Assembly (NCBI RefSeq): GCF_011386835.1
Contig: NC_088792.1
Span: 216,848,394 to 216,912,393 of the forward strand
Origin: Chrysemys picta bellii
Taxonomy: Eukaryota; Chordata; Testudines; Emydidae
Direction: 5' to 3'
Length of the DNA stretch: 64,000 nt
Shown piece after piece: positions 56,108 to 62,827 of the stretch; the stretch's first letter is position 1, and every line of letters starts with the position of its first letter. A program made the translations under genes and the position numbers. Below the pieces are notes generated by a model, which did no database searches, was not told the origin of the DNA, and saw only the letters and a list, made by a program, of their open reading frames with translations.

Positions 56108-56922
56108 TGTGGTGGGGCGATTACCCCACACCCAGAGAGACTGGGCTGCGGCAGGCCTAGGCGCCTGCGTAGACGCGCGGCCAATCAGGAGAGGGCTTAC
56201 CGGGAGCCAATAAGAAGGCAGATTGGAGCCAGCCAATCAGGGCCCGGCTTAGCCATATAAAAGGCTGCCCAGAGCAGGAGCAGTCAGTCTGTTCCAGGCC
56301 TTCAGAGGGGAAGGTCTGTCTCCAGAGCTGGGAGGCCAGCACCACGGACAGCGCAGTGCAGGCCAGCCTGAGAGAGTGGGAGAAGGCCCCACTCCATAGC
56401 CTGCTAGGTGGCAGGCCTGGGAGGAGGAGGCCTAGCGTAGTGAAGGGCTGTTGGGGAAGCGGTCCAGAGGGATAGTCAGAGGAGGAAAGAGAAGGAAGAC
56501 AGGGAGACTGTCACCCGAGGGCCTCTGGACCGGGACTCAGAGTAGTGGGCGGGCCTGAGTCCCCCCCCCTCCTTTCCCCCCCTTTGTTTGCTGTGCTACC
56601 CCACGCACAGCCACGGGCCGCAGGGAGCGGCCGGTCAGAACCACACCAGGTCCTGGACAGTGAGGATCGGACTCGAAGGTGTGGGGCTGTTGTTTACACA
56701 CACCCCCCCCCGGAAGGGGGTGTGAAGAGGCAAAAGGGACACTGTCGGAGGACAGTGCTCCAGAAGAGGACTCCGTACATTGAGGGTGACGCAAGTCCGC
56801 GCACCCAACGCAGGTGGAACGACAGGCGGGACGCCACCCGAAGAGGCGCCCTACTGGTTCGAGCCAATTCCCCAAGACGACCAGGAGGAGGCGCCACAGC
56901 GGTGAGCTACTACCCTGTCACA
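56108..56922 (+). repeat. 5' LTR
   Basis: 815 bp, starting TGTGGTGGGGCGATTACC and ending CTACTACCCTGTCACA. CpG- and GC-rich. It has a compact promoter (see 56181-56262). I saw no canonical AATAAA. By-eye differences from the 3' LTR are about eight point changes plus length changes in the C-runs near 56560-56580 and 56695-56712. Confidence 0.95.
56181..56262 (+). promoter_or_regulatory. LTR promoter: three CCAAT boxes and a TATA box
   Basis: CCAAT occurs at 56181-56185, 56207-56211 and 56233-56237, evenly spaced at 26 bp, and TATAAAA follows at 56256-56262 within CCATATAAAAGGC. The same array is in the 3' LTR (about 62085-62167). Transcription would begin about 30 bp downstream. Confidence 0.8.
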
Positions 56923-57111
56923 CGTGGTGGAGAATGCGGGCATAGCGGTCCGCCCCTGCTACGAGGGGCCAGCGCCAAGACTGCGGACTATTGCCCAGAG
57001 CAGTGCCATGCGCTGACAGACGGTCGACCCGGATTGTGGGTGCAGACCAGGACCCACCAAAGGGGTCCAGAGTGTGGGGGTTGAATCGAGAGTAACCCGC
57101 TGAACCCCAAC
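56923..57111 (+). other. Leader with candidate primer-binding site
   Basis: Two bases after the LTR comes TGGTGGAGAATGCGGGCA (56925-56942), placed where a tRNA 3' end should pair. I could not assign a tRNA from memory. The rest of the 189-bp leader is GC-rich and has no upstream gene. Confidence 0.6.
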
Positions 57112-59058
57112 ATGGAGGCTGAGAAGCTATTAAAATGGCTGCTAGAGAAGCAGCAGGAGCAGTCGGCCCAGCAGCACCAGCAGCAGGTGCAAATGCTGCA
57201 GCAAATGACCACTCAGCAGCAGCTGATGATGACTCAGCACCAAGAGAATCAGCAGCAGCTCCTCCGAGAGTTGGCCAACCAGCAGCGGGTGCAGCAGGAA
57301 CATTTGGTGCAACAGATGGCCGCACTATTACGGCCGGCAGGAGGCACCCCTGCCGCCCCCATGGGAACCGGACTGGGGGATACCCCAGGGGCACTACCGA
57401 TACGCCTCACCAAGATGGGGCCCGAGGACGACCCAGAGGCCTATCTGGTGACATTTGAACGGGTGGCGACTGCTGCCCGGTGGCCCTCAGAACATTGGGC
57501 CACGTTACTAGCCCCTTATTTGACGGGGCAGGCTCAGGCCGCATATCGGAGCCTCGACCCCCGGGAAGCGCTCGAGTACACCCGAGTCAAGGCAGCCATC
57601 CTAGACCATACCGGCATTAGCCCAGAGACCTACCGACAGCGTCTCCGTAAGGAACAATATCCTCCGGGGGCCCGACCCCGCGCTATGGCCCAACGCATCC
57701 GAGACCACTGCTGGAGGTGGTTGAACCCAGAGGGCCTGACGGGACCCCAGGTCGCGGAGATGGTAGCCTTAGAGCAGTTCACCCAGATCCTACCCCCGGG
57801 AGGGAGGGCCTGGGTACGACGGCATCGCCCGGCCACCCTCTCCGCAGCAGTGGCCTTAATGGAGGATTACTTGTCGGCAGAGGGGGCGGAGGCGCCACCC
57901 CGAGCGGCCGGAAGCCTTGGTCGCAAGGGCGGCGCAGAGAAGGTAAACTCTCGTGGGGCAGGAGCCTCCGAACCACTGGCAGGCCACAGCCATGGGCGTC
58001 CGAGGCCTCCCAACCCTGAACCCCGACCCAAGTTACTACCAGGGACGACTCGGAGGGAGCGACAGCCCCCGGAGCGAACAGGCCCCCCCGGAGGAGGCAC
58101 AAGCCCGGCCGAGACCCGAGAGAGGTGCTGGGACTGCGGTCAAGAAGGACATTTCCGGCGAGATTGCCCTTTTATGGACTGCAGCTACGGGCAGGCTTGG
58201 ATGGCCGGACAACGGGCACGGAAGAGAGGGGCAAGAAAGTTGATAGTCCCGGTCCGGGTTGAAGGGAACCCCACCAATGCCCTCGTAGATTCGGGGTGTA
58301 GTCAGACCCTCATACGAGAGGGGCTGGTCCCAAATCTCAATCTTTCGGGGCCCCCGATCTACCTACAGTGTGTGCATGGGGACATCTGCCAGTATCCCAC
58401 AGCCTGGGTCAAGATGGGAGTAGGCTGCCGAGAGGAGGGTCTCTGTGTAGGAGTGGCCCCCAGGCTGGCCTACCCGGTGGTGTTGGGACGAGATTGGCCC
58501 GGCTTCGGAGAGGTCCTCCTGAGATATCAGCCACCCAAGCCCCGACCAGACAGAAATATAGCACCGGGAACGGGGCTGCTTGGGCGCAGGCTAAGGGATG
58601 ACCCCGGCGAGGGGACCTCCTCGACGGCGGAGACCCGTGCGAGTTGTCCTGGAGACAGGCCCCGTTCGGTGGAGGACGCCCGGGTAGAGTTAGAGCGCGA
58701 CGGGGACTTTTTACGTGAGCAACGGGAAGACCCAACCCTAAGCCGAGCCTGGGAACAAGCCACCAACCCTGCTATTGAGGGGGACGGGACGCTACGGACT
58801 CCGCAGGGCCCCCGCTTTGAGGTATGGCAGGACCGCCTGTACCGAATAGCGCAGGAACCCCAGACCCGAGAGACGTTCCGCCAGCTGTTGGTCCCCCGGA
58901 GACTGCGAGCCGGTCTCCTCCACTTAGCTCACGCAAACCCTTGGGCCGGACACCTGGGACACGAGAAGACCCTACAGAGGGTGGCCCGCCGGTTTTTCTG
59001 GCCAGGCATCCACCGGGAAGTGGCAGACTTTTGCGCCTCGTGCCCAGAATGCCAGTGA
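57112..59058 (+). pseudogene. Gag - protease - integrase N-terminus, first part of the gag-pol frame
   Basis: 648 codons from ATG 57112, the first in-frame Met after the leader. Residues about 10-70 are a Gln-rich coiled coil. About 95-170 are capsid-like (DDPEAYLVTFERVATAARWP). 171-255 resemble a SCAN domain. 270-335 are basic and proline-rich. C339/C342/H347/C352 form a CCHC nucleocapsid knuckle (CWDCGQEGHFRRDC). D393-S-G is the protease active site (ALVDSGCSQTLI), with VVLGRDW at 456-462 closing the protease fold. H607/H614 and C644/C647 form the HHCC zinc finger of integrase (PWAGHLGHEKTL, CASCPECQ). The frame then meets TGA at 59056-59058, in a place where no programmed stop is expected. 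Gag and protease lie in one frame with no shift between them. Confidence 0.92.
57622..57876 (+). other. SCAN-like capsid segment
   Basis: Residues 171-255 of the gag frame (PETYRQRLRKEQYPPGARPR ... WRWLNPEGLTGPQVAEMVAL, EQFTQILPPGGRAWVRRHRP, then AVALMEDYLS) follow the SCAN domain pattern known from vertebrate zinc-finger proteins: PEtxRqrFR, RWLxPE, LvLEQFLxILPxxxqxWVxxhxP, A-VxLxEDL. SCAN is known to derive from the capsid C-terminal domain of a Gmr1-like element, so this is a family relative still inside a retrotransposon, expected to mediate capsid dimer contacts. Confidence 0.85.
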
Positions 59059-61896: not shown

Positions 61897-62011
61897 GACG
61901 GTGGATAAGCCGGGTTGCCCGTTGGCAAAGACTAATTTCCGGGACTTTGGGGCCATTAGGCCGGTTAGGATACCCCCCCCCCCCCCGGGAGGGTTCTTAA
62001 GGGGGAGGGTG
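61897..62011 (+). other. 3' untranslated part with polypurine tract
   Basis: A run of about fourteen C near 61973-61986 is followed by GGGAGGGTTC and, directly before the 3' LTR, AAGGGGGAGGGTG (61999-62011). The purine run in front of TGTGG is the expected plus-strand primer. Confidence 0.85.
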
Positions 62012-62827
62012 TGTGGTGGGGCGATTACCCCACACCCAGAGAGACTGGGCTGCGGCAGGCCTAGGCGCCTGCGTAGACGCGCGGCCAATCAGGAGAGGGC
62101 TTACCGGGAGCCAATAAGAAGGCAGATTGGAGCCAGCCAATCAGGGCCCGGCTTAGCCATATAAAAGGCTGCCCAGAGCAGGAGCAGTCAGTCTGTCCCA
62201 GGCCTTCAGAGGGGAAGGTCTGTCTCCAGAGCTGGGAGGCCAGCACCACGGACAGCGCAGTGCAGGCCAGCCTGAGAGAGTGGGAGAAGGCCCCACTCCA
62301 TAGCCTGCTAGGCGGCAGGCCTGGGAGGAGGAGGCCTAGTGTAATGAAGGGCTGTTGGGGAAGCGGTCCAGAGGGATAGTCAGAGGAGGAAAGAGAAGGA
62401 AGACAGGGAGACTGTCACCCGAGGGCCTCTGGACCGGGACTCAGAGTAGTGGGTGGGCCTGAGTCGTGTCCCCCCCCTCCTTTTCCCCCCTTTGTTTGCT
62501 GTGCTACCCCACGCACAGCCACGGGCCGCAGGGAGCGGCCGGTCAGAACCACACCAGGTCCTGGACGGTGAGGATCGGACTCGAAGGTGTGGGGCTGTTG
62601 TTTATACCCCCCCCCCGGAAGGGGGTGTGAAGAGGCAAAAGGGACACTGTCAGAGGACAGTGCTCCAGAAGAGGACTCCGTACATTGAGGGTGACGCAAG
62701 TCCGCGCACCCAACGCAGGTGGAACGACAGGCGGGACGCCACCCGAAGAGGCGCCCTACTGGTTCGAGCCAATTCCCCAAGACGACCAGGAGGAGGCGCC
62801 ACAGCGGTGAGCTACTACCCTGTCACA
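62012..62827 (+). repeat. 3' LTR
   Basis: 816 bp, near-identical to 56108-56922, with the same TGTGGTGGGG start and CTGTCACA end and the same CCAAT/TATA array. GATGT follows, then CR1 sequence resumes. Confidence 0.95.

What the first reader, a model, noticed from the sequence alone, without database searches (positions are those of the whole stretch)
56108..62827. Ty3/gypsy element with a Ty1/copia gene order (integrase before reverse transcriptase)
Sequence shows protease, then the integrase HHCC finger and DD35E core, then RT (YIDD) and RNase H, in one forward frame between near-identical LTRs. The protein motifs (RT, GPY/F integrase end, CCHC gag) are of gypsy type, yet the order is that of copia. 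Established knowledge: this arrangement defines the rare Gmr1-like group of deuterostomes. Inference: a recently active turtle lineage of that group, about 6.7 kb, with no envelope gene.
Basis: partly seen in the sequence, partly recalled or inferred. Interest (0 to 1): 0.92.

Follow-up and report, generated by a model that had tools for sequence, protein, structure and literature searches.

The report
Integrase-first gypsy retrotransposon in a turtle
A jumping element in a turtle genome carries its integrase gene ahead of its reverse transcriptase gene, the opposite of the usual order among its kin; this copy is broken by one stop codon and the order is already known from the Gmr1-like group, but here the same order turns up in one family branch that reaches from turtles to sponges, so it likely arose only once, long ago.

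Summary
A 6,720-bp LTR retrotransposon (56108-62827) has LTRs identical at 803 of 819 columns, a 5-bp duplication (GATGT), and the order SCAN-type capsid, CCHC, protease, integrase finger, integrase core, GPY/F end, RT, RNase H, with no room for envelope. One in-frame stop (59056-59058) splits the frame; 19 of 19 other copies that could be judged lack it. In 20 of 20 other copies read, and in 120 of 120 listed protein relatives, integrase precedes RT; in 114 of 114 Ty3-seeded relatives with both domains, RT comes first. RT, IN and RNase H trees each hold the integrase-first rows in one clade. This is a member of the known Gmr1-like group, not a local rearrangement. The same genome also holds a second, deep integrase-first lineage with 40 of 40 scored copies identical over 600 bp. 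Named Gmr1, Mag, Sushi and Osvaldo references were not available. Known kind; moderate interest.

The parts
56103..56107 (+). target-site duplication GATGT, left copy
   Evidence: exact match to 62828-62832
56108..56922 (+). 5' LTR (815 bp); TATAAAA at 56256, CCAAT at 56181, 56207 and 56233
   Evidence: the promoter role is inferred from motifs
56925..56943 (+). predicted primer-binding site; its complement fits a tRNA-Ala 3' end (recalled, not tested)
   Evidence: the 22 bases after the 5' LTR are identical in 13 of 20 rows examined, window included
57112..59058 (+). first open frame: gag, protease, integrase finger; ends in an in-frame stop
   Evidence: 19 of 19 other copies with the finger aligned to its end have a sense codon there, a 20th could not be judged
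57622..57882 (+). SCAN-type capsid domain
   Evidence: Pfam PF02023 E 3.8e-22; PDB SCAN domains, best ZNF24 3lhr E 3.7e-16
58126..58167 (+). CCHC zinc knuckle of gag
58246..58494 (+). aspartyl protease, DSG motif at 58288-58296
   Evidence: weak Pfam hit E 2.8e-4 below cut-off; motif
58891..59055 (+). integrase zinc finger (HHCC)
   Evidence: Pfam Integrase_H2C2 E 6.8e-19
59059..61896 (+). second open frame, same reading frame: integrase core to RNase H and a 158-aa tail
59116..59436 (+). integrase catalytic core, DD35E
   Evidence: Pfam rve E 2.4e-9; 35 residues between D and E; best PDB match Ty3 7q5b E 2.2e-22
59803..59943 (+). integrase C-terminal GPY/F (SH3-like) end
   Evidence: Pfam PF22938 E 1.2e-11, PF24626 E 1.1e-8
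60301..60780 (+). reverse transcriptase, YIDD at 60625-60636
   Evidence: Pfam RVT_1 E 9.9e-33; the two best PDB matches are Ty3 entries, 4ol8 E 4.1e-72
60973..61359 (+). RNase H
   Evidence: Pfam PF17917 E 7.1e-37, PF17919 E 5.1e-36
61997..62011 (+). polypurine tract and two bases before the 3' LTR
   Evidence: identical in 18 of 20 rows examined, window included
62012..62827 (+). 3' LTR (816 bp)
62828..62832 (+). target-site duplication GATGT, right copy
54887..56107 (+). host LINE, 5' part, with RT domain (CR1 by recall)
   Evidence: Pfam RVT_1 E 2.1e-34 in ORF 54995-56260; joined frame
62833..63336 (+). host LINE, 3' part, in frame with the 5' part once the element is taken out
   Evidence: joined frame; no Pfam family on ORF 62719-63333 by itself

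Best explanation
This is an LTR retrotransposon of the Gmr1-like branch of Ty3/gypsy, with integrase encoded ahead of reverse transcriptase, in a turtle genome that is likely that of the painted turtle; it likely spread by reverse transcription of its own RNA, and this copy is probably dead because a stop codon splits its coding frame. Inferred cycle: the 5' LTR is transcribed; one gag-pol frame is translated whole; the SCAN-type capsid and CCHC knuckle package the RNA; the protease would release integrase and RT-RNase H from the chain; the primer-binding site and polypurine tract prime the two DNA strands; integrase inserts the copy with a 5-bp duplication. The order is an inherited trait of a whole clade, probably fixed once, and not a local accident. 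Shown: anatomy, duplication, order in copies and relatives, clade. Inferred: transcription, processing, packaging, priming tRNA, single origin.
For: Anatomy, duplication and precise empty site. Other copies: 20 of 20 read have IN before RT, 19 of 20 with all eight domains in the same order (one lacks gag and protease); of 21 copies, window included, 17 have two full LTRs, 16 of those 17 an exact 5-bp duplication, LTR K2P 0.0049-0.0290, window 0.0112. Relatives: 120 of 120 listed have the IN end before RT, against 114 of 114 RT-first in the Ty3-seeded set (6 of its 120 lacked a hit for one domain). Clades: RT 100/100, IN 100/100, RNase H 100/99; with sponge, lancelet, echinoderm, amphibian, lizard, alligator and sea-turtle rows RT 100/96 and IN 99/98, RT-first rows of a pseudoscorpion and of two degenerate turtle elements outside. 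Those two degenerate elements are an internal control from the same genome.
Against: No sequence of Gmr1 itself or of Mag, Sushi, Osvaldo or copia was in the trees, so 'Gmr1-like' rests on order, SCAN gag and relatives that bear species names or none. References were best hits of three queries and I chose a part of them, which by itself favours tight clusters. Trees used LG+G4 without mixture; the bootstraps had not settled; the IN and RNase H trees and the IN tree warn of joined long branches, at the base of the integrase-first clade itself. Of the 118 new proteins, 114 had both domains and 2 of these were not IN-first: an RT-first pseudoscorpion protein, and a partial newt gene model with mixed order. 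In 1 of 120 relatives the RNase H piece matched before SCAN. The protease hit is below Pfam's cut-off. No AATAAA lies in the LTR.
Confidence: 0.93

Rival explanations
1. The order is a local rearrangement or assembly error in this one copy of a conventional gypsy element.
For: Conventional RT-first elements do exist in this genome.
Against: 20 of 20 other copies read share the order; 120 of 120 listed protein relatives too.
Confidence: 0.01
2. It is a Ty1/copia element, or a copia-gypsy recombinant.
For: The order of domains is that of copia.
Against: Pfam gives gypsy-type RT (RVT_1), RT_RNaseH and GPY/F integrase end; no copia RT family (RVT_2, recalled name) was listed. Best solved-structure matches of both RT and IN are Ty3. 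RT, IN and RNase H fall in the same clade. No copia reference was in the trees.
Confidence: 0.02
3. Integrase-first order arose several times in gypsy elements, and the clade seen here is a sampling effect.
For: References were best hits of few queries; deep forks within the clade are weak.
Against: RT and IN trees agree on one clade (100/96 and 99/98), with the RT-first animal rows (a pseudoscorpion and two degenerate turtle elements) outside it.
Confidence: 0.12
4. It is a domesticated or host SCAN gene rather than a mobile element.
For: The capsid matches SCAN domains of host zinc-finger proteins.
Against: LTRs, duplication, PBS and PPT, many copies with their own duplications, broken frames in most copies read.
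Confidence: 0.01

Closest known systems
Gmr1 (Gadus morhua) and the Gmr1-like clade (Butler 2001; Goodwin and Poulter 2002)
   Same: Protease, integrase, RT, RNase H order (passages seen in PMC2582038, PMC8220671, PMC3587641 and PMC6238403); no envelope; length near the 6.1-6.5 kb of pufferfish-order elements named Gmr1-4 (PMC11117352, table passage seen)
   Different: Gmr1 itself was not compared; the founding papers were seen only in a reference list. This turtle family has 815-bp LTRs, longer than the 337-518 bp of those fish elements.
SCAN-bearing Gmr1-like elements (frogs in PMC4131045; Emerson and Thomas 2011)
   Same: SCAN domain in gag; the frog paper reports SCAN in over 50% of its Gmr elements only (passages seen)
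   Different: Host and sequence; Emerson and Thomas was not held and its lizard elements are recalled
Chrysemys picta bellii protein LOC135972648 (P0003)
   Same: 96% identical over the 932 aa, same domain order
   Different: Its eight domains lie in one protein of 1,470 aa; the window copy has a stop
Ty3 (yeast)
   Same: RT, RNase H and IN are homologous; best solved-structure match
   Different: RT (607-1008) before IN (1159-1447) in 7q5b

Membership tests
Gmr1-like Ty3/gypsy | integrase encoded upstream of RT | tested here: met
   window, 20 of 20 other copies read, 120 of 120 listed relatives
Gmr1-like Ty3/gypsy | RT, RNase H and IN each group with other integrase-first elements | tested here: met
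Gmr1-like Ty3/gypsy | groups with Gmr1 itself, apart from Mag, Sushi, Osvaldo | not testable with these tools
   I found no way to retrieve named sequences of these elements
Gmr1-like Ty3/gypsy | SCAN-type capsid in gag (frequent, not universal) | tested here: met
Ty3/gypsy | gypsy-type RT, RNase H and GPY/F integrase end | tested here: met
Ty1/copia | copia-type RT and integrase sequence | tested here: not met
   no copia family listed by Pfam; best matches Ty3
endogenous retrovirus | envelope gene between pol and 3' LTR | tested here: not met
   115 nt between the ORF end and the LTR
active autonomous element | one unbroken gag-pol frame in this copy | tested here: not met
   in-frame stop at 59056-59058

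The most novel reading that the evidence does not exclude
The integrase-first gypsy element with a SCAN-type capsid is not a vertebrate or deuterostome oddity: it arose once, before sponges and other animals parted, has been carried ever since, and is still amplifying in turtles through a deep second lineage; the capsid that vertebrate SCAN transcription factors borrowed is therefore far older than vertebrates.
Probability: 0.4. Interest if true: 0.5.

Novelty: new member of a known kind. Interest (0 to 1): 0.36.

Why it matters
As a single element it is an ordinary, broken copy of a known group. What it opens is larger: the clade gives a clean test of how a pol gene order can be swapped and still work, since RT-first and integrase-first elements sit in the same genome. 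If the clade truly spans sponges to turtles with a SCAN-type capsid, the source of the SCAN domain in vertebrate transcription factors can be traced through animals, and a lineage with many identical copies lets its present activity be tested in living turtles.

Tried and rejected
Viral contigs: 81 stretches matched a pattern, none confirmed. A tRNA search of the window gave none. I wanted to test the primer tRNA by finding the turtle tRNA-Ala gene, and to count LTR copies, but the genome machine did not answer (below), so the tRNA-Ala reading stays recalled. Rejected readings: local rearrangement, copia element, host SCAN gene, and a programmed stop or frameshift between finger and integrase core (19 of 19 judged copies have a sense codon there, and the frame changes in other copies fall at different places).

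Papers. Listings of ten searches; passages of PMC4131045, PMC3424704, PMC11117352, PMC4592553, PMC8220671, PMC2582038, PMC11011659, PMC8556966, PMC3587641, PMC9004415, PMC2577118, PMC12314368 and PMC6238403; no paper was read whole. For sponge Gmr1-like or SCAN-bearing elements the searches were 'Gmr1 + sponge + Gypsy' (4 papers) and 'SCAN domain + sponge + retrotransposon' (6 papers). I saw no report in them, but looked into passages of only two (PMC8556966 for Gmr1, PMC6238403 for Gmr1 and sponge), so I do not claim that it is unpublished. For turtle Gmr1-like elements I searched and saw none named in the listings or in the passages of PMC11011659 and PMC9004415. Repbase holds painted-turtle Gypsy entries (Gypsy-13_CPB is named in PMC9004415); I could not compare this family with them. 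On checking I found that PMC8556966 already lists Gmr1 among clades present in several phyla, and says that its own annelid survey did not find the annelid Gmr1-like clade; for the first reason I lowered the interest of the novel case from 0.55 to 0.5.
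Full report
What is there. The window holds an LTR retrotransposon, complete from end to end, at 56108-62827. The LTRs are 815 and 816 bp, identical at 803 of 819 aligned columns, with 9 substitutions, all transitions, and 2 gap events. The ends are TG and CA, and GATGT flanks the element on both sides. The element sits in a LINE with an RVT_1 domain (the name CR1 is recalled): with the element and one GATGT taken out, the flanks join into one open stop-to-stop frame of 574 codons across the junction. After the 5' LTR comes a conserved TGGTGGAGAATGCGGGCAT stretch (the 22 bases after the LTR are the same in 13 of the 20 rows examined) and before the 3' LTR a polypurine tract (the last 15 bases are the same in 18 of 20). 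From memory the first fits the 3' end of tRNA-Ala; this was not tested.

The order of domains. Pfam places, from left to right, SCAN, CCHC knuckle, aspartyl protease (below cut-off; DSG motif), integrase H2C2 finger, integrase core, GPY/F-type integrase end, RT and RNase H. The best solved-structure match of the RT-RNase H part and of the IN part is Ty3 in both cases, and there RT (607-1008) lies before IN (1159-1447). So the proteins are gypsy-type and the order is the other way round. The open frame is cut by an in-frame stop at 59056-59058 behind the finger; the same frame then goes on to 61896. Only 115 nt separate it from the 3' LTR, so there is no envelope gene.

Not a local accident. 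The window lies in a held 2.37-Gb genome whose contig C1 has the length given for the contig of the 96%-identical Chrysemys picta bellii protein, so the host is very likely the painted turtle. An RT piece of 611 bp had 512 first-look candidates there, of which 40 were scored: the window at 100% and 39 others at 94-97%. In 20 of 20 the integrase lies before RT, and 19 of 20 have all eight domains in the same order; one lacks gag and protease. Where the window has its stop, 19 of 19 copies with the finger aligned to its end have a sense codon; in the 20th the alignment ends early. Of the 20, 16 have at least one stop inside the domain pieces, mostly at places of their own (three places are shared by two copies each); 8 keep all eight pieces in one frame, and 3 of those 8 have no stop inside the pieces (the pieces do not cover the whole frame). 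Of the 21 copies, window included, 17 have two full LTRs, 16 of these an exact 5-bp duplication, and LTR distances run from 0.0049 to 0.0290 (window 0.0112). Without a measured turtle rate I give no years.

Shared by the relatives. The integrase-to-RNase-H frame found 7,296 proteins at E 1e-10 among 7,957 scored candidates, of which the best 120 are listed: turtles, sturgeons, cyprinids and other fish, frogs, a caecilian, and many unnamed contigs. In 120 of 120 the integrase end lies before RT; in one of them the RNase H piece matched out of order. As a control I seeded a search with yeast Ty3 pieces: of its 120 listed proteins 114 have hits for both RT and IN core, and 114 of 114 have RT first. 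In the same turtle genome two degenerate elements (L042, L043) are RT-first, so both orders occur side by side. Of the 118 new proteins of a third search, seeded with another turtle element, 114 have both domains and 112 of these are integrase-first; the exceptions are P0297 of a pseudoscorpion, RT-first, and P0258, a partial newt gene model with mixed order.

Trees. With 37 of the 120 relatives, the window and two further turtle families against 24 of the 120 Ty3-seeded proteins (plus the two degenerate turtle elements for RT and IN), the integrase-first rows form one clade in RT (100/100), IN (100/100; one relative lacked the domain) and RNase H (100/99). Adding 25 of the 118 new proteins to the RT tree and 15 of them to the IN tree, which bring in three sponges, lancelets, sea urchins, a sea cucumber, amphibians, lizards, an alligator and sea turtles, leaves one integrase-first clade (RT 100/96, IN 99/98), with P0297 just outside. 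Limits: rows were chosen by hand from capped lists of best hits; LG+G4 without mixture; unsettled bootstraps; long-branch warnings. Named Gmr1, Mag, Sushi, Osvaldo and copia sequences were not to be had.

Known or new. Passages in PMC2582038, PMC8220671, PMC3587641 and PMC6238403 state that Gmr1 elements are gypsy elements with integrase before RT. The founding papers (Butler 2001; Goodwin and Poulter 2002) were seen only in a reference list. A passage of PMC3424704 states that the SCAN domain of a vertebrate gene family derives from the gag of a Gmr1-like element; PMC4592553 calls the homology striking and the capture a hypothesis; PMC4131045 finds SCAN in over half of frog Gmr elements only. 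The finding is thus a member, unnamed in what I could see, of a known kind.

What goes beyond the finding. First, Pfam finds the SCAN-type capsid in gag pieces of integrase-first elements of two sponges (E 8.3e-25 and 1.2e-18), a lancelet (1.2e-13), a sea cucumber (3.1e-10) and an anole (8.4e-15); these five pieces were chosen beforehand for a SCAN match. Both sponges and a third one fall inside the clade. Contamination or horizontal transfer of the sponge rows was not excluded, and gags of RT-first elements were not tested as a control. Second, the genome holds a deep second integrase-first lineage (L041): a 600-bp RT stretch had 827 candidates, and 40 of 40 scored are 100% identical (only the best candidates are scored); the LTRs of the one copy examined match at 396 of 396 positions, although its flanks show no matching duplication. 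Relatives at 94% amino-acid identity occur in sea turtles, in clusters of up to 577 member sequences, and at 84% in Pelodiscus, which fits descent within turtles. Third, L044 is a third integrase-first family of this genome.

How it likely works. The anatomy predicts an ordinary LTR cycle. What differs is that the protease is followed by integrase and only then by RT-RNase H in one gag-pol frame. Because RT and IN are presumably cut apart by the protease, their order on the chain could change without loss of function; this step is inference. Gag, protease and pol share one frame in the window copy and one protein in P0003, so how such elements make more Gag than Pol is open.

Scores. Confidence in the identification is high; interest is moderate, since the order and the SCAN link are known, and the added value lies in the clade that reaches sponges and in the very young second lineage.

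Noticed in passing
L041 (G000:C2:524656-529519), L045, L046: A second, deep integrase-first lineage in the same genome: 40 of 40 scored copies identical over 600 bp of RT (827 candidates), many long open frames, LTRs 396 of 396 identical in the copy examined. Very recent amplification; relatives with hundreds of member sequences in sea turtles.
   Followed up: partly
L044 (G000:C4:94620800-94625800): A third integrase-first family, 60-70% identical in protein to the window element over SCAN, IN, RT and RNase H pieces.
   Followed up: partly
L042 and L043: Broken RT-first elements in the same genome, found with a chromodomain-bearing relative's integrase as query: a natural control for the order.
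   Followed up: partly
P0324, P0326, P0359 (sponge proteins): Integrase-first pol in three sponges; P0324 and P0359 have SCAN-type capsids by Pfam here and P0326 by the precomputed list, far outside vertebrates.
   Followed up: partly
P0297 (Cordylochernes scorpioides): One predicted protein with two stretches each of RT, RNase H and integrase, the first unit RT-first; it stands just outside the integrase-first clade in the RT and IN trees.
   Followed up: partly
window 54887-56107 and 62833-63336: The element is nested in a LINE (CR1 by recall) whose joined frame is open for 574 codons.
   Followed up: yes
window 56108-56922: No AATAAA, ATTAAA or AGTAAA on the plus strand of the 5' LTR, so the polyadenylation signal is unclear.
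   Followed up: no
window 10407-10927 and 15511-16059: C-rich tandem repeats with units of 46-97 bp.
   Followed up: no
PMC12314368 (corals), passage: A coral paper calls an expressed element Copia because integrase comes before RT, and cites Goodwin and Poulter 2002 for it; it might be a Gmr1-like gypsy element instead.
   Followed up: no
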